The translations under genes and the position numbers were made by a program. From assembly GCF_000517545.1 (NCBI RefSeq), contig NZ_BAIV01000015.1, forward strand, positions 62,001 to 126,000: 64,000 bases of DNA, written 5' to 3'. Numbering within the stretch: the first letter of the stretch is position 1; each line of letters begins with the position of its first letter. Below are positions 9,355-22,637 of the stretch, one piece after another. Source of the stretch: Bacteroides reticulotermitis JCM 10512 (GTDB lineage: Bacteria; Bacteroidota; Bacteroidia; Bacteroidales; Bacteroidaceae). Under the pieces are notes generated by a model that saw nothing but the letters and a program-made list of their open reading frames with translations, did no database searches and had not been told where the DNA came from.

Positions 9355-10029
9355 TCATTTTAGTAAGTCAGGTCGTAAACGTTTGGTTCGTTCCAACGAT
9401 TGTTGAAGTTCCCACTCTTTTATTTTAGCCTCATGCCCAGATAGTAGAATATCTGGTACCATCCATCCGTTGTAGTCTGCCGGACGAGTATATACAGGAG
9501 CTGCCAATAGGTTGTCCTGAAATGAATCGGATAGTGCCGATTGCTCATCCGAAATAACGCCAGGTATAATGCGCACAATAGCATCCGCAATAACTGCAGC
9601 AGCCAATTCGCCACCGGTCAGCACATAATCCCCTATACTGATTTCCTTCGTAATGAGATGTTCGCGAATTCGATAGTCAATCCCTTTGAAATGTCCGCAA
9701 AGTATTATAAGGTTTTGCGTAAGCGAAAGTGTATTGGCCATCGGTTGGTTGAACTGTTCCCCATCGGGTGTGGTAAAGATTACCTCATCATACTCACGTT
9801 CTGCCTTCAAAGCATTAATGCAGCGTTCAATCGGTTCGATTTTCATAACCATACCGGCAAAGCCACCAAAAGGATAATCATCCACCCGGCGGTATTTGTC
9901 TTCTGTATAGTCGCGTAAGTTGTGAATGTGTATTTCAGCAAGTTCTTTATTCTGAGCCCGCTTCATAATTGAGCAGTTGAAAAAACCTTCAATCATTTCG
10001 GGTAAAACTGTTATTATATCAATACGCAT
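9355..10029 (-). CDS. trmD: tRNA (guanine-N1-)-methyltransferase
   Basis: A 224-residue SPOUT methyltransferase that makes m1G37 in tRNAs to prevent +1 frameshifting. Motifs: [13 protein letters not shown] at the start, [12 protein letters not shown], the trefoil-knot AdoMet site [13 protein letters not shown] and [15 protein letters not shown], and the C-terminal RPADYNGW and [15 protein letters not shown]. Full length. Divergent from ligA, with candidate promoters for both genes in the 74-bp spacer. Confidence 0.95.
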
Positions 10030-10031
10030 AA

Positions 10032-12101
<2,070 letters not shown>

Positions 12102-12121
12102 TGAGATATGAAAAATATTCG

Positions 12122-12129
12122 TACTTTTG
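12122..12129 (+). promoter_or_regulatory. Promoter -7 element of dapA
   Basis: TACTTTTG fits the -7 consensus, 35-42 bp upstream of the dapA ATG. Confidence 0.4.
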
Positions 12130-12163
12130 TGTTCTGATTAATTAGAGATCATTATAAAAACTC

Positions 12164-13057
12164 ATGATACAGACAAAATTGAAAGGAATGGGGGTAGCAC
12201 TGATTACTCCTTTCAAAGACGATGAAAGCATTGATTATGATGCGTTAATACGAATGGTGGATTATCTGTTGCAAAACAATGCCGACTTTTTGTGCGTGTT
12301 GGGAACTACGGCGGAAACGCCTACCTTAACAGAGGAGGAAAAGATAAAAATCAAAAAGTTGGTGATTGATCGGGTTAACGGCAAAGTGCCTATCCTATTA
12401 GGAGTAGGTGGTAATAATACTCGTGCAATAGTAGAAACCTTAAAGAAAGATGATTTTACAGGGGTCGATGCCATTTTGTCTGTTGTGCCGTATTATAACA
12501 AACCATCTCAGGAAGGAATTTATCAACACTACAAGGCTATTTCAGAGTCCACAGAGCTTCCTATAGTACTTTATAATGTTCCCGGTCGCACAGGAGTTAA
12601 TATGACTGCAGAGACGACCTTACGTATAGCCCGTGATTTAAAAAATGTGATTGCTATAAAAGAAGCTTCAGGTGATATAACCCAAATGGATGACATTATC
12701 AAAAATAAGCCGGCGAACTTTGATGTAATTTCGGGTGACGATGGTATAACTTTCCCATTGATAACATTGGGAGCTGTCGGAGTTATTTCTGTTATCGGAA
12801 ATGCTTTCCCGCGCGAATTCAGCCGCATGACACGTTTGGCTTTGCGAGGGGATTATGCCAACGCGTTGGTTATTCATCATAAATTTACCGAGTTATTTAA
12901 CTTATTATTTGTAGATGGCAATCCGGCTGGTGTTAAATCAATGCTTAACGCAATGGGAATGATTGAAAATAAGCTCCGTTTACCGCTGGTTCCCACTCGA
13001 ATTACAACTTTTGAAGCAATACGTAAAGTGCTAAATGAGTTGAATATTAAATGCTGA
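12164..13057 (+). CDS. dapA: 4-hydroxy-tetrahydrodipicolinate synthase
   Basis: A 297-residue class I aldolase fold. The pyruvate Schiff-base lysine is K166 in AIKEASGD, the proton-relay tyrosine is Y137 in LYNVPGRTG, and the pyruvate-binding loop reads GTTAETPT (GTTGE in most bacteria; the alanine variant is a Bacteroidetes feature as far as I know). It condenses pyruvate and aspartate semialdehyde, the first step toward diaminopimelate and lysine. Ends at an intrinsic terminator (13075-13108). Confidence 0.94.
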   Translation: MIQTKLKGMGVALITPFKDDESIDYDALIRMVDYLLQNNADFLCVLGTTAETPTLTEEEKIKIKKLVIDRVNGKVPILLGVGGNNTRAIVETLKKDDFTGVDAILSVVPYYNKPSQEGIYQHYKAISESTELPIVLYNVPGRTGVNMTAETTLRIARDLKNVIAIKEASGDITQMDDIIKNKPANFDVISGDDGITFPLITLGAVGVISVIGNAFPREFSRMTRLALRGDYANALVIHHKFTELFNLLFVDGNPAGVKSMLNAMGMIENKLRLPLVPTRITTFEAIRKVLNELNIKC

Positions 13058-13074
13058 TATCATATTTCTGAAAG

Positions 13075-13108
13075 GGCGCATATAAATCAGGAAAAGTTTA
13101 TATGCGCC
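13075..13108 (+). terminator. Intrinsic terminator after dapA
   Basis: A 12-bp stem (GGCGCATATAAA / TTTATATGCGCC) with a 10-nt loop, followed by a TTTTT run, 17 bp after the dapA stop. Confidence 0.85.
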
Positions 13109-13203
13109 TTTTTCTATTTATGCCTTCCAAAATGGATAGCTTAAAAAAGGTTGAAATATAATGAGTTATTATGTTTGTATAGGTAATCAAAAAGCAATTG
13201 AGA

Positions 13204-13749
13204 ATGAACTTGCATATAGAATTAGATACAAGCCACCCTGCATATGCGTGGCTTGAACAACAAGCGGATAAGATTGGAGCTAGAGGACATTTTGGCACTC
13301 ACATTGATTGTTACACATCTGTTCCGGTACAGAATGAATTTCACCTGCCGGTTCATATCCTTGATTGTCGGAAAGGTATGCCGACATTAGAAGAAGCATC
13401 TGCATTACCATCACTTAAGAACCAGGCATTGATATTATACACAGGAAATTTATATCGGAATGAATACGGTAGTAAAGCTTACTTCGATGAAACTGATACA
13501 TCTGTGCAGAACGAAGTGCTTCTACGAATATTAAACAAATCTCCCGAGCTGATTTTGATTGATTCGTATGGAATCGGTCAACATGGCCCTATTCACCAGG
13601 AACGTGACAAAACTTGCGAGTCTTTCGGTTGCTATGTAATTGAGAATATTCGCATTGCTCCTGAAGAGATTAATACAATACATACAATTCATGTTCACTT
13701 CGACTTGGACTATCCATCAACAGGCAAGCCATGTACCGTTACTTACTGA
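13204..13749 (+). CDS. Cyclase-family (kynurenine formamidase-like) protein
   Basis: A 181-residue protein resembling the cyclase/metal-dependent hydrolase family (PF04199). The metal-site segment reads GHFGTHIDCYTSVP, which keeps HxGTHxD but lacks the Pro and second His of the usual HxGTHxDxPxH signature. The middle (ALILYTGNLYRNEYGS) and IDSYGIGQHGPIHQERD resemble the core of the fold. The substrate is unknown and the altered motif means catalytic activity is not assured. Start chosen at the ATG at 13204; a TTG two codons upstream is in frame. It stands alone at the edge of the accessory island. Confidence 0.6.
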   Translation: MNLHIELDTSHPAYAWLEQQADKIGARGHFGTHIDCYTSVPVQNEFHLPVHILDCRKGMPTLEEASALPSLKNQALILYTGNLYRNEYGSKAYFDETDTSVQNEVLLRILNKSPELILIDSYGIGQHGPIHQERDKTCESFGCYVIENIRIAPEEINTIHTIHVHFDLDYPSTGKPCTVTY

Positions 13750-14350
13750 AAACATTTAGGTAGCTCTCTGAAAAACTATCTAGGCTCCGCATGAAGAAAG
13801 ATGTGTCTATTCACTACCACAGCTTTGGGTATTAATACTCTATTGATCAGGCATTAATAAACTGGCACTTAAGTAACCTGAATCAATTACTTCGGTTACT
13901 CAGCCCAAGTACTAAGGTTGCTCTGAAGAAGCACTCAGATTATTTAAAACGAGTGATCGATTCTTCCGAATATCCTATGGAATTATCTCTTTGAGTAAAT
14001 AGGCTTGCATCTAAATTGACGGATAAACCATACATAATACGGATTTCCAACTACTGTGCATTGTGCTAAAATCTCTCTATTCTTTCTGATTCACGATACT
14101 ACTTCATTGAAAGACTTCTGATTTACTTCACAGTCTTTTCCTATTCTTTCGTCAGGGTTTATAAAATAAATAGATAAAAACAGGGCTTTCTGAAAAAAAA
14201 TGCGAACTCTACATGAATCTTTGTTTATCTACGTAAGAAGAAAGGGGGGATCTGCGTTACTCCTTTTTTAACTAAGATTAGCGTCAAATCCTAGAGGATG
14301 GAGACTGGTAGTTAATCTACAAATTAAGCAATTTAAGCGAGTTGATGAAT
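13750..14350. other. Spacer with no recognisable gene
   Basis: About 600 bp with short, interrupted frames only. I recognise no RNA, IS remnant or regulatory element. It lies directly before the dispersed repeat and the insertion elements, so it may be decayed accessory DNA. Confidence 0.4.
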
Positions 14351-14769
14351 GATGCAACACTCTCATGAATTAATCACTTTTTCGCATATCATTCAGTATA
14401 TCAACCAATTGTAATGCGCCTTCTTTTTTGAAATCACTTTATTCTGATGAGCGATAGCGATTGCTTGCTTCCCCCAAAAAACAGAGTTTACAATTTATCA
14501 AATAAGTCCTTTTATGAACCGTATTGTACGCAACTATTCGTGGATTTAAGCAGTCTTTTTTCAAGTTTATTCCCTTCTATTTCCTGTTTCACATCATGTG
14601 CGACGCCTGTTCCACATTATGTGCAACAGCTGTTCCACGATAGTGAGTCAGCCGTTCCACATCTGTGGAACAGGAAGTGTAATGGACAAAAATGTCTTTA
14701 ATTAGTTGTTTACTACTATCTAATGGGAGTTTTTTGCTAAGTACTCAGTCTTTGGGAGTCGGTATTATG
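14351..14769. repeat. Dispersed ~420-bp intergenic repeat, copy A
   Basis: This stretch aligns almost end to end, at clearly high identity, with 52891-53309 in the same orientation. Shared blocks include ATCATTCAGTATATCAA, TTCTGATGAGCGATAGC, CGCAACTATTCGT and AGTTGTTTACTACTATCT. It contains a tandem set of four 22-23-bp dyad units (14583-14674). Neither strand keeps the same reading frame in both copies without stops or indels, so it is best treated as non-coding or decayed. Similarity stops exactly at the left inverted repeat of the ISL3 element. Confidence 0.75.
14583..14674. repeat. Tandem array of four ~22-23-bp dyad-symmetric units
   Basis: Units begin at 14585, 14608, 14631 and ~14653 and each resembles TGTTCCACA-nn-TGTGGAACA. 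The last one is a perfect 8-2-8 palindrome (14654-14671). Copy B of the host repeat carries the same four-unit array. Confidence 0.65.
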
Positions 14770-14797
14770 GGTCAATCCGAAAACCCTGTGGGTGTTT

Positions 14798-14827
14798 TTG
14801 CAGATAACCTCAAGTGATCTATCTTTG
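14798..14827 (+). promoter_or_regulatory. Promoter inside the ISL3 left end
   Basis: TTG (14798-14800) and TATCTTTG (14820-14827) are spaced by 19 bp, a very good Bacteroides promoter. It would drive the small first frame of the element and argues for a start at or after 14841. Confidence 0.65.
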
Positions 14828-14840
14828 CATTCAAATTATA

Positions 14841-15260
14841 ATGCTCAATCCAATGAATTCGAATCGCAGCTTGCATAACTTACTACGCGTGATCTTCCCT
14901 GAAGTTTTAATGGAGTATTTCGACATTTCCGGTTGGCATGACGATCCTGCTAAAATCGAAGTTTGGCTTGATGAGAAGAATTACATGGAACGTTCTGATT
15001 ACAAGAGTGGTACTGTGATAGCGCATGGCTTTACTGATGAGAAAGTGATTCAGGACTTTCCTCTGCGTGGCAAACCTGTCTATCTTCATGTCAGACGTCG
15101 ACGCTGGTATGACAAAGCCACGGGTGAAACCTTTTCCTATACATATGATGATCTTACAGCCGAAGGGACGAAACTCACTCCAGAGTTCGTGGCTTTTTTA
15201 AAAGTCTCTGACCCACTGTGTGTGAATGAAATGAGAAGAACCTATTCGGTTATGGCATAG
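14841..15260 (+). CDS. ISAon1-family transposase N-terminal-region protein
   Basis: About 139 residues. The segment from residue ~65 (HGFTDEKVIQDFPLRGKPVY, then LHVRRRRWYDKATGETFSY) is the signature of the small accessory frame that precedes ISAon1-type transposases, probably a DNA-binding or N-terminal part of the transposase. The frame opens upstream with a GTG at 14814, but the promoter lies there, so the ATG at 14841 (or 14853) is preferred. The last residues (YSVMA) run into the IS110 insertion site, so the natural C terminus and its junction with the downstream transposase frame have been altered. Confidence 0.8.
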   Translation: MLNPMNSNRSLHNLLRVIFPEVLMEYFDISGWHDDPAKIEVWLDEKNYMERSDYKSGTVIAHGFTDEKVIQDFPLRGKPVYLHVRRRRWYDKATGETFSYTYDDLTAEGTKLTPEFVAFLKVSDPLCVNEMRRTYSVMA

Positions 15261-15275
15261 CCATAGCCATAACCG
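15247..15275. repeat. 10-bp inverted repeat spanning the IS110 left junction
   Basis: CGGTTATGGC (15247-15256) and GCCATAACCG (15266-15275) are perfect complements with a 9-nt loop. The left arm is ISL3 target DNA and the right arm is IS110 DNA. This could be a coincidence, or a segment of the IS that pairs with its target. Confidence 0.6.
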
Positions 15276-15313
15276 TTCGTTCCCCATTTTCCTACAACAT
15301 ATCATTTTGCATA

Positions 15314-15321
15314 TCTTTGTT
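15314..15321 (+). promoter_or_regulatory. Promoter -7 element in the IS110 left end
   Basis: TATCTTTG is a perfect -7 box in the IS110 left non-coding end, about 170 bp before the transposase ATG. It is suitably placed to make both a left-end non-coding RNA and the transposase mRNA. No good -33 TTG is present. Confidence 0.5.
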
Positions 15322-15324
15322 GTT

Positions 15325-15489
15325 GGCAAGCAAGTAAGTCAGATCACTAATGAGCTTTCAAGTTCAATTAAAAGTGTGACACTGCAGGTCTGTAGAATGA
15401 TTATTGGCCGATAGATGCCATATGGAAGAGTACCTCACATTCCGAAAGACCGCAGGCTTGCCTATTTTCTTTACTAATACTTATAGGCA
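15325..15489 (+). ncRNA. Candidate bridge RNA region of the IS110 element
   Basis: IS110 elements of the IS110 subgroup transcribe a structured bridge RNA from the non-coding end ahead of the transposase gene, with loops that pair with target and donor DNA. Here the non-coding left end follows a consensus -7 box and contains TATGGAAGAG (15421-15430), identical to the core plus right target flank (16865-16874). Boundaries and fold are not determined. A segment complementary to the left target half (15266-15275) lies outside this interval, which does not fit the known compact loop arrangement well. Confidence 0.35.
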
Positions 15490-16840
15490 ATGGCAAGAAA
15501 TGCAAAAATGATCAAGTCCTGACGGGAACAAACTGGCAATTGTAAATCCAGATGCTGCTGGTATTGATATCGCTGACACAGAAATGCAGGTGTGCGTGCC
15601 AGAAGACCGGGATGGCGAGAATAACCGCAGATTCGGTAGTTTTACCTGTGAACTCACTAATATTGTTTCATGGTTGAAAGAGTGTCATATTACCACTGTA
15701 GCAATGGAGGCTACAGGAATCTATTATCTATCACTTTTCCTAAAGCTACAGGATGCCGGTATTGAAGTCATTTTAGTCAATCCGCTTGATGTAAAGAATC
15801 TATCTGGGCATAAGACTGACTCTGCTGATGCAGAATGGTTGATGCTGCTACATCGTTATGGTCTATTGAAACCGTGTTATCAACCTGGTAATGCCGCCAG
15901 ACAGATACGTAACCTTACACGGCAGCGTAATAACCTCCTACGTTCTGCGGAAAAACAGATCCTGTATATACAAAAATCTCTTGAATTGATGAATATAAAG
16001 TTGTCCACTGTGATATCGGATGTCACAGGGTTGTCAGGAAGGAGAATAATCTCTGCTATCTTGGCCGGCAATCGTGTTCTGGAGTATTTAGCATCATTAG
16101 CGATGTCTAATTGTAAGGCTAGTAAGGAAGAAATTGCTTTATCCCTCGAAGGAACATGGGATGCTGACCTGCTATTTACACTTAAGCAAAGTATAGAGGC
16201 ATATGACTTCTTTATGAAGAAAATTACTGATTGCGATCAAGAGATTGAAAAATTTCTGAAACTATATCAAGCTCAAATGGACACGAACGAAGAGAATCTG
16301 GTTCGTTACAAAAGAAAAAAGAATAGTCGTTCCAAAAATGCACCTGTTATAGATATTGAACTGTATGCTTTTTCTGTGTGGGGTGTAAATGTCTTTGACA
16401 TTCCTGGACTGAAGGATACGGCTGTTATGCAACTTATTGGAGAACTTGGACATGACTTTACAGAGAAGTTTGAGACTGCTGAAAAGTTCAGTAGTTGGTG
16501 TAACCTTGTCCCCAATAACAAAATATCGGGGGAAAAACTGCTTTCCAGTCGCATAATGAAGAAAAAGAATATTGTAGGTCAAATATTCAGAACAGCTGCG
16601 TCTCCAATGGCACGGGATAAGAGTGAAATGGGGTATTATTATAGGCGGATGCGTGCCAAAAGCGGAGCTTTACAGGCAAATGTGGCAACAGCTCACAAGA
16701 TTGCTAAGATTTTCTATACTATGGTTAAGACTAAGCATACTTATGATTCCAGCAAAGTTGGACTTGTTGAAAAGGAGATAACAGAAAAAAAAATAGCCAA
16801 ACTCGAAAGAGCACTTGCAAGACTCAGAAATGTATCATAA
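15490..16840 (+). pseudogene. IS110-family transposase (DEDD), frameshifted near the start
   Basis: The N-terminal DEDD RuvC-like domain is visible: GIDIADTEMQV (first Asp), AMEATGIYY (Glu) and KTDSADAEWL (two Asp). The C-terminal Transposase_20 domain starts at IPGLKDTAVMQLIGEL and includes the serine-bearing KISGEKLLSSR region. The natural start is the ATG at 15490 (MARNAKMIKS), but the frame breaks at about 15518 and resumes as DGNKLAIVNPDAAG. Adding GG (TCC-GGT-GAC) or deleting one C restores it. From the internal ATG at 15584 the product would lack the first catalytic Asp. As sequenced it would be inactive; the lesion type matches others in this window. Confidence 0.85.
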
Positions 16841-16851
16841 AAATACACTTA

Positions 16852-17862
16852 TTGCATAGGGTTCTATGGAAGAGGAAGATTGAGACTACCGTTGCCAGCA
16901 TAAGCTCGATAGGCGAAGCTTATGGTGTAAACGGGAAACAGTTGTCTTCACAGTACAAAGAGTTTATCAGTCAATACAGAGAGTGGGATCAGTTAGGACA
17001 TGCCTCAGAGTATGTGCTGTTCAAGCAGAATATTGGTCCTAGCCTGTGTATTGACGAGACTTCTTTGAGTTGCGGAGAATTATATACTGTGGTTACCAAC
17101 CGTTCGGGGCATGGGGGTAAAGGCACACTTGTGGCCATGATACGTGGTACCAAATCTGAGGATGTTATAAAAGTACTTGAAATGATCCAGCTATCCAAAC
17201 GTAAGACGGTCAAGGAGTTCACCTTAGACCTCTGGCCCACCATGATGTGGATTGTCCGATCGGCTTTTCCCAATGCCACTATGACAAATGACCGGTTCCA
17301 TGTACAGAAGCTTTTCTATGAGGCAATTGACGAACTCCGGATATCTTATCGTTGGATGGCACGCGACCTTGAGAACGATGAAATTCAGCGGTGCAGAGAG
17401 CAAAACATAGAGTATGTTCCCTTCCGGCATGCTAATGGCGATACACGTAAGCAGCTGTTAGCAAGAGCCAAACACGTACTTGTAAAGCATTTCACTAAAT
17501 GGACTCAAACCCAAAGAATACGTGCGGAAATCATATTTGAGTACTATCCGGAATTGAAAGCTGTCTACGACCTGGCTATGGAGTTGACAAATGTCTACAA
17601 CAAACACTACGACAAGGATGTGGCACGTGGCAAACTTGCATTATGGTATAATAAGATAGAGAAGCTGGGGTACGGATGCTTCAGAACCGTAACCAATACC
17701 ATGCAGAACTATTATGAAACAATACTAAATTACTTTATTAACAGAGAGACAAATGCATTTGCAGAATCATTCAATGCCAAAATTAAAGCTTTCAGAGCAC
17801 AATTTAGGGGAGTCAGAGATATTCCATTCTTTATTTTCAGATTATGTAAAATAGCCGTTTAG
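16852..17862 (+). CDS. ISL3/ISAon1-type DDE transposase
   Basis: A 336-residue transposase catalytic region. Candidate catalytic residues: Asp in LCIDETSLS, Asp in ATMTNDRFHVQKL, and Glu in NAFAESFNAKIKAFR, followed by the QFRGVRDIPFFIFRL tail typical of ISL3 enzymes. The frame begins with TTG at 16852, which is inside the IS110 or its junction; in the uninterrupted element the frame would continue upstream into 15235-15255 and connect to the small first frame. The catalytic core is intact, but its expression has lost the native 5' region. Confidence 0.85.
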   Translation: MHRVLWKRKIETTVASISSIGEAYGVNGKQLSSQYKEFISQYREWDQLGHASEYVLFKQNIGPSLCIDETSLSCGELYTVVTNRSGHGGKGTLVAMIRGTKSEDVIKVLEMIQLSKRKTVKEFTLDLWPTMMWIVRSAFPNATMTNDRFHVQKLFYEAIDELRISYRWMARDLENDEIQRCREQNIEYVPFRHANGDTRKQLLARAKHVLVKHFTKWTQTQRIRAEIIFEYYPELKAVYDLAMELTNVYNKHYDKDVARGKLALWYNKIEKLGYGCFRTVTNTMQNYYETILNYFINRETNAFAESFNAKIKAFRAQFRGVRDIPFFIFRLCKIAV

Positions 17863-17922
17863 ATTTAACAGAACAACAGGGTTTTCGGATTGACCCGATT
17901 CTTCCAAAAGCCTTTTTAAATG

Positions 17923-17951
17923 AAAAAGGTATCCTTTTGAGATACCTTTTT
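17923..17951 (-). terminator. Intrinsic terminator of the tRNA-Arg genes
   Basis: An 11-bp stem (AAAAAGGTATC / GATACCTTTTT) with a 7-nt loop, directly after the 3' end of the downstream tRNA on the minus strand, with a U5 tract. Confidence 0.75.
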
Positions 17952-17952
17952 G

Positions 17953-18026
17953 TGATCGCGGCAGGATTCAAACCTGCAACCTGCTGATCCGTAGTCAGCT
18001 ACTCTATTCAGTTGAGCTACGCGACC
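17953..18026 (-). tRNA. tRNA-Arg (anticodon ACG), copy 2
   Basis: 74 nt with a complete cloverleaf. The anticodon stem GCTGA/TCAGC closes the loop CTACGGA, giving anticodon ACG. The T arm reads GCAGGTTTGAATCCTGC. Acceptor stem GGTCGCG pairs with CGCGATC (one G-U), discriminator A; CCA is not encoded. It is the second of two tandem copies. Confidence 0.95.
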
Positions 18027-18046
18027 AATTTGATGTTTTTAGAGTG

Positions 18047-18120
18047 TGACCGCGGCAGGATTCAAACCTGCAACCTGCTGATCCGTAGTCAGCTACTCTA
18101 TTCAGTTGAGCTACGCGGCC
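18047..18120 (-). tRNA. tRNA-Arg (anticodon ACG), copy 1
   Basis: 74 nt, identical to the neighbouring copy except in the acceptor stem, where GGCCGCG pairs with CGCGGTC. The third base pair is C-G here and U-A in the other copy, a compensated change. The spacer between the two tRNAs is 20 bp, so they are made as one transcript from the promoter at 18142-18171. Confidence 0.95.
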
Positions 18121-18141
18121 ATTGTTTTGTTTTAACGGGTG

Positions 18142-18171
18142 CAAAGATACGTACTTTTCCTTAAATAACAA
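18142..18171 (-). promoter_or_regulatory. Promoter of the tRNA-Arg pair
   Basis: On the minus strand a TTG (18169-18171) and TATCTTTG (18142-18149) are separated by 19 bp, an excellent consensus promoter, 21 bp upstream of the first tRNA. Confidence 0.75.
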
Positions 18172-18198
18172 GTAAACTACGATTTTTTTTGAAGATAT

Positions 18199-20496
18199 TT
18201 ATTCGATGAAACGGTAATTAAATAGTTGCCAGCCGATACTTAACCCCACATTCCACTCCTTTTTCGGTGAGCTATAATGATTTACATATGCAGCGATGGA
18301 ACCGAATGGTAATTGGCATACGACTGATAATTCTCCTAAATATTCAAACCGAGAGAATGCTTTTCCATAATATGCCTTGTTTAACGAATTTCTTTCAATC
18401 GGATAGATCGGCATAAAACCATAAAATTCTCCCCGAATATGAAAAATCTGGTTAAAACGATAGATTGGACGAATTCCTGCTCCTGCAAACTGATTGGCAC
18501 GAAAAGCTTCATTGTAACTTAACTGGCTATGTGATGTGGGAGAGAAATCACAGGCTTGCATCATGGTAGCATTATAATTCTCAGAGAAATTCTTCGAAGC
18601 ATATACCGCTTTTAAATACCATCCTAATGTCCACTTATTGGTCATCCGATGATATTTCTCTTTCATGTATGATAGTTGTAGCCATGAATGATGCTCTTTA
18701 GTGCGCTTATTGGTCGTTTCTTCACCTGGATAATAAAACTCCCGTCCTACGAATATCTGTGCGATAAGAGCTTCACGATACCCTTGTACTGGATACTGTC
18801 TTGAGTTCAACGTGCTTCCGTTAAAACTGATTGAACCGCCAAACAGATTGTAGCGACTTCGATCGAACTTATCTTTTTCAAAGTCAATCACACTCTTTTG
18901 AAAATACTTATCTTCAATTTGAGCCATTCCAATACCAAATTCAGCTCGCTTGCTCGATAGAAAAGGGAGCGCTACTTGAAGTTTTAAAAAGCGTTCATCC
19001 TTTTGATTGAATGCAGGCCTATCATTTTTGGAAAAAAGTTTGTCTCTCTTGAAATAATCGTAAGTGCTTAAAGAAGCAATAAATCGATACGAAGTCGGTA
19101 TCGTGGTAGAAAAGTCCATTTTGGCCATGAACTGGACGTTATTATATACCTTTCCAAGTTGTCCATCCAGCACAAACTCTTTTGAATAATAATTCAAATC
19201 TTGATAGCTGAGTCCCAAATATATTTGATTGGAGTTGGAAGTGGATATATTTCCTCCGAGTCGAACTGCCAGGCTGTTTTCAAGCTTTACTCTCAGGTGC
19301 AGGTCATAGGTTTCATCATCAGGATTGTAAACTGCATGCGGAATTATTTCAGAAAGTATATTATCCGAGAGTAAGCGGAAGTAGGCCTTTTTGAGGTCTT
19401 CATAAGTAAACTCTTCGCTATCGGAAGCATGAAATTCTTTTTTGATATATGCTTGTTGTTGCGTATTGGCTCCTTCTACAAAGATTTGTTTGAAACGTAG
19501 TTCCGGATAGTTGCTTCGATACACTAGGCGTCTAAGACGAATATTATCAATATTTACCCGCCGATGGATGCGACTTTTAATGGAGTCCATCATATTCATC
19601 GTCCGATTGTATCCAATGTCATGTAGTTCATCTATCCGTTGGAAGTCCATCAAGCTAACATTATCATACTTAAAAGTCATAAGCACACCAACGGAATCGG
19701 GTATAGAGTAATCCGTTTTTTGCATAACCATATTTTCGATCTGGCTCATGAGATCATTCTCTTTAGGCTTCGTTGGATTGGTGGAAACTACGCTGCCTAT
19801 AATGATATCAGGGTGAAAGTCATCTCGCATAACATCAGTCGGAAAGTTATTATATATACCTCCGTCATAGGCTAATACGTTATCAATCTCAATTGGTTTA
19901 AACATAAATGGAAAGCTCATTGATGCCCGGACTGCATCACCCAGATCTCCTTTTTTGAAGACGAGTTGCTTTTTGTTATAAACATCCGAAGCAACGCATC
20001 GAAAAGGAACGAATAATTTATCAAAATCACCCTTACAGGTTGCTGTAGCGCGAGCGTATAGATCAATAAATACCAGATTCATTTGAATAGGGTTGACTAC
20101 GCTAGCCGGCAGGAACTGTGGTTTAAAGTTGTTCAATGAATCTTTAAACGAGAAACGGATGTTGAAGAATTCCGGTGTAGGAAGATTCTTCTTAAAGTAG
20201 TATACATATTTCTCTTCTACTTCGCCGGAATACCATCTCTTAAACTCTTCCGATTTTAATAATTCCACCATTTCATCGGGAGAATACCCCATTGAATACA
20301 GAGAACCGACAATAGCTCCCATAGAAGTTCCTGTAATATAGTCAATAGGTATATTGTTTTCTTCCAGGGCCCGAATTATACCAATATGCGTCATTCCTTT
20401 GGCACCACCACCACTCAATACCAAGCCCACCTTTTGAGCACAGACTATTGGAGTTAATAATCCGAAAAATAGAAATACCAAAAGCTTATTTCTCAT
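18199..20496 (-). CDS. Patatin-like phospholipase with outer-membrane barrel
   Basis: 765 residues from MRNKLLVFLFFGLL, a Sec signal peptide ending near CAQ (residues 1-21). A patatin domain follows with the oxyanion loop SGGGAKG, the nucleophile Ser58 in GTSMG, and the catalytic Asp in AYDGGIYNN. After about residue 330 there is a POTRA-like segment (FKQIFVEGANTQQQAYIKK) and then a C-terminal beta-barrel of the BamA/TamA type ending in aromatic-rich strands. This architecture is the bacterial patatin/surface-antigen fusion, probably an outer-membrane lipase. The frame begins 19 codons earlier, but the signal peptide decides the start. Confidence 0.88.
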   Translation of the reverse strand: MRNKLLVFLFFGLLTPIVCAQKVGLVLSGGGAKGMTHIGIIRALEENNIPIDYITGTSMGAIVGSLYSMGYSPDEMVELLKSEEFKRWYSGEVEEKYVYYFKKNLPTPEFFNIRFSFKDSLNNFKPQFLPASVVNPIQMNLVFIDLYARATATCKGDFDKLFVPFRCVASDVYNKKQLVFKKGDLGDAVRASMSFPFMFKPIEIDNVLAYDGGIYNNFPTDVMRDDFHPDIIIGSVVSTNPTKPKENDLMSQIENMVMQKTDYSIPDSVGVLMTFKYDNVSLMDFQRIDELHDIGYNRTMNMMDSIKSRIHRRVNIDNIRLRRLVYRSNYPELRFKQIFVEGANTQQQAYIKKEFHASDSEEFTYEDLKKAYFRLLSDNILSEIIPHAVYNPDDETYDLHLRVKLENSLAVRLGGNISTSNSNQIYLGLSYQDLNYYSKEFVLDGQLGKVYNNVQFMAKMDFSTTIPTSYRFIASLSTYDYFKRDKLFSKNDRPAFNQKDERFLKLQVALPFLSSKRAEFGIGMAQIEDKYFQKSVIDFEKDKFDRSRYNLFGGSISFNGSTLNSRQYPVQGYREALIAQIFVGREFYYPGEETTNKRTKEHHSWLQLSYMKEKYHRMTNKWTLGWYLKAVYASKNFSENYNATMMQACDFSPTSHSQLSYNEAFRANQFAGAGIRPIYRFNQIFHIRGEFYGFMPIYPIERNSLNKAYYGKAFSRFEYLGELSVVCQLPFGSIAAYVNHYSSPKKEWNVGLSIGWQLFNYRFIE

Positions 20497-20540
20497 ATCT
20501 TGTTTAAACTGTGAATCTTTTTTTCTATACTTTAAGAGTT

Positions 20541-20548
20541 CAAATATA
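20541..20548 (-). promoter_or_regulatory. Promoter -7 element of the patatin gene
   Basis: TATATTTG on the minus strand, 45 bp before the start codon at 20496. It lies upstream of the signal-peptide start and supports that choice. Confidence 0.5.
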
Positions 20549-20597
20549 TGCAATTGTTCCGAATAATCGATGTAATCTAGCTAGTTTCAGTTTAAAA

Positions 20598-20634
20598 AAG
20601 AGCATTGTGACACTTCTGTGTGCACAATGCTCTT
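20598..20634 (-). terminator. Intrinsic terminator after htpG
   Basis: A perfect 12-bp stem (AAGAGCATTGTG / CACAATGCTCTT), 13-nt loop, followed on the minus strand by a T run. It is 37 bp past the htpG stop codon. Confidence 0.8.
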
Positions 20635-20670
20635 CGCAAATCTATATTATGAATAAAAAGGGGCGGGGAA

Positions 20671-22637
20671 TTATATTAGTTCCAAACTACGTTTAACAAA
20701 ATTGTTTAAAGCTTCTCCTTTTAGCATATTGTTTTGTAGTAACGCTAAATCGATTAATTGACGGACAATTTTATTGTTTCCGGCATAAGCAGTAAAAATA
20801 GCTTCTTTTTTATTCTTGAGATCATCCCATTTCTTATCCAAATCATTTAACTCGTCTTTCTCGGAAGTTGGAATCTCATCTTCTTTCTTATCTTTCTGTT
20901 GTTCTTTAAGTTCATCTCGACGTTTTTCAACCGAATTTATCTCGTTTTGCAATGGAGTTAGTTCGGCTTTGCATGCTGTTTCTTCGTCTTCAATAATCTT
21001 TTTCACCAGCTTATGATCCGAATTTAAAATGAGATTGAACATATCCGGCATTTCTCCATAAAAACTCATACCCGATTGAATATTGGCCATCTCTTTCATA
21101 CGACGCATGTATTCGCTTTGGGTAATCATAACTGGAGTAGCGTTTTCTCCTAATGCCTGAGTAGTGATATTGAACTCTATCTTCTCCATTTTAGGAAGCT
21201 GACTCTTAAATGCACAGGATATAGCTTCCTGTTTTCCGGCCTCCAGAGTTTCTCCCTTCGTATCTTCCTTTACAATCAAATTGTCAATAACGTCACTATC
21301 TACCCGGGTAAAACGTGATTTCTCTAATTTTTGTTCCAACATACTTACCATAGCCACATCAAGTTGTCCATCCATTAGAAGTACATTGTAGCCGTGATTT
21401 TTAGCACCTTCAATATAGCTGTATTGCTCTTCTTTATTGTTAGTATACAGATAGATAGTATCCCCATTTTGGTCAGTTTGATTATCTTTAATCAAAGTCT
21501 GATACTCTTCGTAGGTATAATACTTTTTATCTGTATCGGTGAAAAGGGCGAATTTTTTCGCTTTATCGTAAAAATCCTCTTGGGTAAGCATTCCGTAATT
21601 GATAAATATCTTGAGATCATTCCACTTTTCTTCAAACTGCTTGCGATCGTTCTTGAATATGGATTGCAGACGGTCGGAAACCTTCTTTGTAATATAAGTC
21701 GAGATCTTCTTCACATTGGAATCGCTTTGCAAATAGGAACGCGACACATTTAGAGGAATATCCGGGGAGTCTATAACTCCATGCAGCAAGGTGAGAAAAT
21801 CGGGTACAATACCTTCTACAGAGTCTGTAACGTAAACCTGATTGCTGTAGAGCTGAATCTTATTTTTATTGAGTTCGACATTGCTCTTCACTTTAGGGAA
21901 GTACAGAATACCTGTCAGATGGAATGGATAGTCTACGTTCAAATGTATCCAAAACAAAGGATCGTCGGACATCGGGTATAATTTTCTATAAAAACCTTTG
22001 TAGTCTTCATCAGAAAGCTCACTAGGTTTACGAGTCCAAAGTGGAGTAGTATCGTTTATGATATTTTCCTCGGTAGTTTCAACTTGTTTGCCGTCTTTCC
22101 ATTCTTTTTTCTTTCCGAATGCAATGGGTACTGGTAAGAAACTACAATATTTCGTTAACAAACCGGATATACGAGATTCTTCGAGGAATTCTTTGCAGTC
22201 ATCATCAATATATAAGATGATATCCGATCCTCTATCAGCTTTTTCTACATTTTCAATCGTAAATTCAGGACTGCCGTCGCAGGACCATTTCACTGCTTGT
22301 GCACCTTCTTTATGAGATTTGGTAATAATCTCTACTTTCTTAGCTACCATGAAGGCAGAATAGAAACCCAACCCGTATACTTATCCATCTCTTCAGCTGT
22401 CAGACCAATACCACGGTCAGAAATCGTAATCGTATCTTTGCCCAACTCAACGTGAATGGTTAAATCTCCCAATTCGCCTTTAAATTCACCAATAGAGGCA
22501 AGGGTGTTTAATTTCTGAGTAGCATCCACAGCATTGGAGACCAATTCACGCAAGAAAATCTCATGATCGCTGTATAAAAACTTTTTAATGATTGGAAAAA
22601 TGTTCTCTGTTGTAACTCCAATATTACCTTTTTGCAT
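20671..22637 (-). pseudogene. htpG: Chaperone HtpG (Hsp90), internal deletion
   Basis: Both ends of a bacterial Hsp90 are present. The N-terminal part has the GHKL ATPase motifs ELVSNAVDA and ISDRGIGLT; the rest begins at LGFYSAFMVAKKVEI and continues through the middle and C-terminal dimerisation domains to residue ~660. Between EEMDKY and LGFYSAF about 25 residues expected from the family (the ATP-lid segment ending in GHFG) are missing, and the frame changes at about 22375. The implied loss is about 79 bp. ATP binding would fail if real. Flanking sequence is otherwise intact, so an assembly error is possible. Confidence 0.9.

What the first reader, a model, noticed from the sequence alone, without database searches (positions are those of the whole stretch)
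15247..15430. IS110 left end carries segments matching both halves of its own target: candidate bridge RNA
The reconstructed target is CGGTTATGG|AAGAG. Within the IS110 non-coding left end, 15266-15275 (GCCATAACCG) is complementary to the left half, and 15421-15430 (TATGGAAGAG) is identical to core plus right half. The two thus pair with opposite DNA strands, which is what bridge-RNA guide loops do. A perfect -7 box (15314-15321) could drive the RNA. Against it: the two segments are ~145 nt apart and the first lies upstream of that -7 box, unlike compact known loops.
Basis: partly seen in the sequence, partly recalled or inferred. Interest (0 to 1): 0.75.

Follow-up and report, generated by a model that had tools for sequence, protein, structure and literature searches.

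The report
IS110 bridge RNA homing on ISL3

Summary
The IS110 left end does encode a bridge RNA, but not with the guides or target proposed. The RNA is 15324-15462, just after a TAnnTTTG box; compensatory changes support its fold (15 of 32 pairs in 17 sequences). Its 7-nt left-target guide TTAAAAG (15368-15374) equals the target at 15198-15204. In 32 related elements with 12 guides, 217 of 224 letters match at this register (next best 83; 0 of 100,000 permutations). In Bacteroidales the right-target guide lies 5' of the left one, an order reported for IS1111, though this RNA is upstream of the recombinase as in IS110; distant relatives do not decide the order. The target is the T6A4G junction of two ISL3 ORFs, hit more than once. 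The window's recombinase reads as frameshifted, its own right-target guide does not match, and the right-donor guide is unresolved.

The parts
15205..16872 (+). IS110-family element, 1668 bp counting one AG core copy
   Evidence: Empty-site comparison with L050, 250 of 293 across the joined flanks; length
15198..15204 (+). Left target half TTAAAAG ending in the AG core (15203-15204), part of CTTTTTTAAAAG at the ISL3 ORF1/ORF2 junction
16871..16872 (+). Second AG core copy at the right junction; right target begins at 16873 (AGGAAG)
15237..15242 (+). Left subterminal inverted repeat AGAACC, 32 nt from the left end (partner 16860-16865)
   Evidence: six bases alone are chance level, the support is the shared position in 10 of 14 elements
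16860..16865 (+). Right subterminal inverted repeat GGTTCT, 7 nt from the right end
15247..15275 (.).
   Evidence: by eye L003 has the same arms and L010 a palindrome of other letters at this place
15312..15319 (+). -7 promoter box TATCTTTG (TAnnTTTG; consensus recalled) just upstream of the RNA
   Evidence: TAnnTTTG near the RNA start in 29 of 32 elements, absent in L015, L016, L113
15324..15462 (+). Bridge RNA: outer stem, target-binding loop, donor-binding loop
   Evidence: R1 139.6 bits (the window was in the training set); pair counts; single-sequence fold z -3.3
15342..15348 (+). Right-target-guide position (GATCACT), 5' of hairpin P2; in this copy it does not match the right target
   Evidence: Register from permutation over 17 groups; mismatch of this copy from the letters in the same call
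15351..15366 (+). Apical hairpin P2 of the target-binding loop
15368..15374 (+). Left target guide TTAAAAG
   Evidence: 7 of 7 to 15198-15204; 217 of 224 letters over 32 elements
15406..15419 (+). Apical hairpin P4 of the donor-binding loop
15421..15428 (+).
   Evidence: Last 7 letters identical in 24 of 24 elements, 5 variants
15584..16840 (+). IS110 recombinase ORF as listed; frame open from 15512, separated by a frameshift from the conserved ATG at 15490
   Evidence: PF01548 1.1e-16, PF02371 4.4e-08; DEDD and SG aligned to IS621 in relative L010, read by eye
14814..15204 (+). ISL3 ORF1, left part of the interrupted target
   Evidence: Listed ORF start; ISL3 zinc-ribbon match below its Pfam cut-off, 20.5 against 25.5 bits
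16873..17862 (+). ISL3 ORF2 (DDE_Tnp_ISL3), right part of the interrupted target
   Evidence: PF01610 4.6e-49

Best explanation
The left end of this IS110 encodes a bridge RNA (15324-15462) on the strand of the recombinase gene. A first internal loop, capped by hairpin P2, reads the target: the 7-nt guide TTAAAAG on its 3' side has the sequence of the left target half and would pair with the bottom strand there; in relatives a weaker guide on its 5' side is complementary to the right target top strand. A second loop, capped by hairpin P4, reads the donor: TATGGAAG on its 3' side has the sequence of the element's own right end. The left-target and left-donor guides both end in the AG core, where circular element and target would be exchanged. 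In this copy the target is the T6A4G junction of the two ISL3 transposase ORFs. Shown by sequence: element ends, RNA fold, and correspondence of left-target, right-target and left-donor guides across relatives. Inferred by homology to IS621: transcription, recombinase binding, strand pairing, exchange. Not found: the right-donor guide.
For: Ends by empty site. Fold: 92.9% of 535 cells paired, 15 of 32 pairs with compensatory change, covariation 0.372 against 0.213 (sd 0.014) shuffled and at most 0.119 slid; 27 of 32 pairs on 34 distinct model-fitted rows. Left-target guide: 26 of 32 elements 7/7, five 6/7, one 5/7; 217 of 224 at this register, next best 83; 0 of 100,000 permutations over 12 guides; boundary-free search finds the own guide exactly in 26 of 32 flanks, other guides in 5 of 352. 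Multi-copy test: seven copies in Parabacteroides massiliensis plus L109 and L085, guide AAAAGAG, all nine at AAAAGAG^. Right-target guide: 53.1 of 85 against 32.8 (sd 4.3), 0 of 3000. Left-donor guide 24 of 24; over 5 variants 155 of 20,000 permutations reach it, about the least possible. Promoter box 29 of 32. Outside the training set: Adhaeribacter L117, R1 37.3 bits, left guide 6/7, donor 7/7, right 5/6; Paraburkholderia L119, left 7/7, donor 7/7, right 5/6, though R1 does not detect it significantly (8.8 bits, E 0.87).
Against: No RNA or transposition data. The window's own right-target guide does not match. Right-donor guide not found: best of 216 scans z 3.1, uncorrected. Some left boundaries (L012, L014, L015, L083, L113) were set by hand with the guide in view; answers this only in part, and at 6/7 its background is high (own 31 of 32, others 90 of 352). 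Six of 38 oriented hits (L013, L084, L086, L110, L029, L115) were dropped for want of a left boundary and may hide misses. Target letters just outside the 7-nt match are conserved without matching the guide (C at -9 in 9 of 9 and G at -8 in 8 of 9 AAAAGAG sites; C at -8 in 7 of 8 TAYTCAG sites), so recognition is not fully explained. TTAAAAG alone is unspecific (21 sites in 64 kb). Right ends were partly recognised by the donor pattern. L012's fold alone is weak (z -1.45). No Rfam family matched.
Confidence: 0.93

Rival explanations
1. One reading: target CGGTTATGG|AAGAG with guides at 15266-15275 and 15421-15430.
For: Both segments exist; segment 2 is a guide-like segment.
Against: Both target halves lie inside the element; segment 1 is a palindrome arm upstream of the promoter box; L003 carries both segments in another site, and L010 lacks segment 1 while sitting in the same ISL3 site.
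Confidence: 0.02
2. The RNA and its left guides are real, but the order is as in IS621 and the pairing 5' of P2 is not a right-target guide.
For: The right-guide signal is modest and absent in the window copy. One other register also reaches a low count (n 6, shift -2: 8 of 3000). In the scan of 12 distant relatives, without a null, the top-ranked solution favours the order found here in 3 (L119, L124, L126), is tied in 3 (L117, L122, L125) and favours the IS621 order in 6 (L118, L120, L121, L123, L127, L128).
Against: In the Bacteroidales set the left-target and left-donor guides lie on the 3' side of their loops whatever the right guide does; the 5' register gives 0 of 3000 at n 4, 5 and 6. 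The IS621-order search window is not the same size, and several of its solutions are implausible.
Confidence: 0.15
3. The shared ISL3 position reflects one old insertion carried along with ISL3, not repeated targeting.
For: Window and L010 are close in both elements, 90% and 89%, and may be one event.
Against: Distances disagree elsewhere: IS110 73% with ISL3 49% (window, L011); IS110 56% with ISL3 75% (L011, L017). L003 has the same guide and sits at TTAAAAG^ in a flank without an ISL3 ORF2 match.
Confidence: 0.06

Closest known systems
IS621 bridge RNA (IS110 group; PMC11208160: passages, section 12)
   Same: RNA upstream of the recombinase gene; two internal loops for target and donor; left guides with top-strand sequence; core included in guides; DEDD recombinase with C-terminal serine
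   [quoted passage not shown] here the bottom-strand-pairing guides are on the 3' side. Left target guide 7 nt, not 8-9; core AG, not CT; longer recombinase (449 aa in relative L010, 328 in the IS621 structure entry)
IS1111 seekRNAs, e.g. ISEc11, ISKpn4, ISPa11 (PMC11187229: passages, abstract, sections 12 and 6)
   [quoted passage not shown] subterminal inverted repeats
   Different: RNA downstream of tnp there, upstream here; recombinase 330-350 aa there
ISEc21 (IS110 type; PMC11187229, section 12)
   Same: Upstream RNA; natural target is a conserved stretch inside another IS family's transposase gene (IS3)
   Different: Opposite guide order; here the target is ISL3, at the ORF1/ORF2 junction
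IS4321/IS5075 (title seen in a reference list only)
   Same: IS1111 members that target a conserved part of another transposon (Tn21-family ends)
   Different: Different group and target

Membership tests
IS110 family (broad) | DEDD RuvC-like domain plus C-terminal PF02371 domain with SG | tested here: met
   PF01548 and PF02371; DEDD and SG aligned to IS621 in L010, by eye
IS110 family (broad) | Bridge RNA in a non-coding end with target and donor guides | tested here: met
   the right-donor guide was not found
IS110 group | RNA upstream of the recombinase gene, left end longer than right end | tested here: met
   RNA 15324-15462, recombinase from 15490, right end 32 nt after the stop
IS110 group | Bottom-strand match 5' of top-strand match in the RNA (IS621, ISEc21) | tested here: not met
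   Left guide 3' of P2, right guide 5' of P2 in the Bacteroidales set; the window's own right guide does not match; distant relatives undecided
IS1111 group | Top-strand complement precedes bottom-strand match | tested here: met
   same limits as the row above; order statement from PMC11187229
IS1111 group | Subterminal inverted repeats of 7-17 bp | tested here: inconclusive
   Longest exact repeat 6-18 bp in 14 elements, 6 in the window; no null was run and 6 bp is chance level; in 10 of 14 it begins 30-36 nt from the left and 6-7 nt from the right end
IS1111 group | RNA downstream of the recombinase gene | tested here: not met
   RNA is upstream
IS1111 group | Recombinase branches with IS1111 | not tested
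   No named IS1111 reference at hand; no tree built

The most novel reading that the evidence does not exclude
RNA location and guide order, which the two founding papers present as marks of the IS110 and IS1111 groups, are uncoupled in a lineage of long-recombinase IS110 elements of Bacteroidota, perhaps reaching Proteobacteria (L119): the RNA is in the IS110 place, with the IS1111 guide order in both loops and subterminal repeats. It would be an intermediate between the groups and a third bridge-RNA layout.
Probability: 0.55. Interest if true: 0.65.

Novelty: new variant of a known kind. Interest (0 to 1): 0.55.

Why it matters
It gives a naturally retargeted set (12 left guides in 32 elements, 26 with all seven letters matched) mostly from Bacteroidales, from which guide rules can be read. 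A swapped guide order in an upstream RNA bears on how the IS110 and IS1111 groups arose and which layouts bridge recombinases can use. Repeated homing on the ISL3 ORF junction is a second example, after ISEc21 in IS3, of an IS110 guided into another family's transposase gene.

Tried and rejected
Rfam over 10000-22000: only tRNAs and sub-threshold hits downstream. Own genome: one copy. DNA search of plasmids and phages and protein search of viral contigs: no relative. Right-donor guide: 216 scans at hand-set positions, none convincing. A regular expression for the donor guide failed and was replaced by a fixed offset from P4. Printed counts '5/5: 0' come from slicing the wrong end of the guide; one search gives the counts used. 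Right-guide registers other than the one reported were reached by 8 to 2312 of 3000 permutations at n 4 to 6, the lowest being n 6, shift -2; hairpin starts there were set by hand, and near-identical L102 and L109 count as two groups. Distant relatives: R1 was run on L117-L120 only; L118 and L120 gave no hit and L119 an insignificant one. Seven alphaproteobacterial relatives (L121-L127) show a donor-type match TTAGGAA (top-ranked in six, third in L127) and mostly A-rich left guides; order undecided. Considered and dropped: the RNA on the minus strand (fold z -2.4 against -3.3; guides would carry the core at the other end).

Full report
What was claimed.

The ends of the element. The IS110 interrupts an ISL3 element (ORF2 PF01610 4.6e-49; ORF1 only a sub-cut-off ISL3 zinc-ribbon match). 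Uninterrupted homologues read GCTTTTTTAAAAG followed directly by ORF2. Joining window 15204 to 16873 aligns without gaps to L050 at 250 of 293 positions. The first segment is an arm of a perfect palindrome, 15247-15275, which explains its complementarity to 'the flank'.

Relatives. The recombinase brought 18 loci from named genome contigs. I aligned 17 left-end segments of about 135 nt: the window, L003 and 15 of those 18 (A2). The fold has an outer stem, a first internal loop capped by hairpin P2, a stem, and a second internal loop capped by hairpin P4; P2 was added by hand to the computed consensus. Of 535 cells 92.9% pair, 15 of 32 pairs show changes on both sides, covariation 0.372 against 0.213 (sd 0.014) in shuffles and at most 0.119 when partners are slid; further pair types do not exceed shuffles (265 of 500). 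Single-sequence folds: z -3.3 for the window, -1.45, -2.60 and -3.07 for L012, L018 and L023. The covariance model R1 has hits in 7 of 399 genomes of the family, 14 of 15 genomes holding named loci and 7 of 123 genomes of the P. massiliensis family; these include genomes it was built from. On the 34 distinct model-fitted rows, 27 of 32 pairs have compensatory changes; that alignment leans to the structure and includes two weak opposite-strand hits.

Left target guide. After P2 each RNA has a variable segment ending in AG; in the window TTAAAAG (15368-15374), and left of the insertion TTAAAAG (15198-15204). Of 41 hits I left out the two opposite-strand ones and L022 (same element as L090). Of the remaining 38 I could set the left boundary in 32; L013, L084, L086, L110, L029 and L115 were dropped. 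Of the 32, 26 match 7 of 7, five 6 of 7, one 5 of 7. Over letters, 217 of 224 match at this register, next best 83 of 224; over 12 distinct guides 0 of 100,000 permutations reach the observed score. Guide matching stops at 7 nt: positions -8, -9, -10 match in 5, 10 and 5 of 32. Yet target letters there are conserved in two groups without matching the guide (C at -9 in 9 of 9 and G at -8 in 8 of 9 AAAAGAG sites; C at -8 in 7 of 8 TAYTCAG sites), which I cannot explain. Because some boundaries were set by hand, I also searched a 130-nt stretch upstream of each RNA: the own guide occurs exactly in 26 of 32, other guides in 5 of 352; with one element per guide, 9 of 12 against 1 of 132; at 6 of 7 the background is high, 31 of 32 against 90 of 352.

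Parabacteroides massiliensis carries seven near-identical copies of one such element; two further genomes carry close relatives (L109, L085). Their guide is AAAAGAG and all nine insertions lie at AAAAGAG^.

Right target guide. The segment 5' of P2 is complementary to the right target top strand. Over 24 elements in 17 groups five positions score 53.1 of 85 against 32.8 (sd 4.3) permuted, 0 of 3000; n 4 and n 6 also give 0 of 3000 at that register. Other registers are reached by 8 to 2312 of 3000, the lowest at n 6, shift -2. Hairpin starts were set by hand and L102/L109 are counted as two groups. The window's own copy does not fit (GATCACT against AGGAA).

Donor guides. The segment after P4, TATGGAAG in the window, equals the element's right end. 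The last seven letters agree in 24 of 24 elements whose right end was found, in five variants (ATGGAAG, ATGATAG, ATAGAAG, ATAGGAG, ATAAAAG); 155 of 20,000 permutations of the five reach this. Right ends were partly recognised by this pattern, but in the window and the seven-copy family they are fixed independently, by the empty site and by divergence of copies. No convincing right-donor guide was found.

Order of guides. [quoted passage not shown] The seekRNA paper says that in IS1111 the top-strand complement comes first and in IS110 the order is reversed (PMC11187229). In the Bacteroidales set here the bottom-strand guides are on the 3' side of both loops, the IS1111 order, while the RNA lies upstream of the recombinase gene as in IS110. 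In 14 elements the longest exact subterminal repeat is 6-18 bp; in 10 of 14 it begins 30-36 nt from the left and 6-7 nt from the right end (no null). Beyond the training set, L117 and L119 fit the left and donor guides. For the order, the top-ranked solution in 12 distant relatives favours the order found here in 3, ties in 3 and favours the IS621 order in 6, without a null and with search windows of unequal size: undecided there.

Promoter. TAnnTTTG lies near the RNA start in 29 of 32 elements; in the window 15312-15319. The consensus is recalled.

Target biology. The target is CTTTTTTAAAAG where ISL3 ORF1 and ORF2 meet; ORF2 is open from this point in the +1 frame (L050), so it may be a slippage or frameshift site (inference). 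[N]TTTT[CT]TAAAAG was found in 25 of 28 ISL3 loci scanned, not in L054 and L057, which begin inside ORF2, nor in L058. CTTTTTTAAAAG occurs five times in the 5.4-Mb host assembly. Five of the six TTAAAAG-guide elements (window, L010, L011, L016, L017) have an ISL3 ORF2 match beside them, partial in L016. IS110 and ISL3 distances disagree: window and L011, 73% and 49%; L011 and L017, 56% and 75%. The site was therefore probably hit more than once.

State of this copy. From the conserved ATG at 15490 the recombinase stops after ten codons; the rest of the frame is open from 15512, while L010 and L003 read through there. This copy is probably inactive on its own; its RNA could act with a recombinase in trans (inference).

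Novelty. In listings from searches (open PubMed Central papers) I saw no title or abstract start about a bridge RNA in Bacteroides IS110 elements, ISL3 as an IS110 target, or this order in an upstream RNA. Figures of the two founding papers are not held and ISfinder was not available, so this is no proof of absence.

Noticed in passing
15193-15204 with 16873-16890: At the ISL3 ORF1/ORF2 junction T6A4G, ORF2 is open from exactly that point in the +1 frame (seen in L050): a possible frameshift or slippage site in Bacteroides ISL3 elements.
   Followed up: partly
15490-15584: The recombinase is frameshifted ten codons after the conserved ATG, compared with L010 and L003.
   Followed up: yes
15247-15275: Palindrome between left end and promoter box; by eye L003 has the same arms, while L010 and the seven-copy family have palindromes of other letters there.
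   Followed up: no
L102-L109, L085 and L018-L027 left flanks: Target letters at -8 and -9, just outside the 7-nt guide match, are conserved but do not match the guide.
   Followed up: no
L121-L127 (alphaproteobacterial plasmids): Seven IS110 relatives share a donor-type match TTAGGAA and mostly A-rich left guides, with a left end of about 110 nt; perhaps the same layout with an AA core.
   Followed up: partly
L012, L018: Subterminal inverted repeats reach 17 and 18 bp, much longer than in the window.
   Followed up: no
17953-18120: Two adjacent tRNA genes on the minus strand just downstream of the ISL3 element.
   Followed up: no
L010 (L092) and L102-L108: One P. massiliensis genome carries two lineages of this IS110: one copy in an ISL3 site and seven at AAAAGAG sites.
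   Followed up: partly
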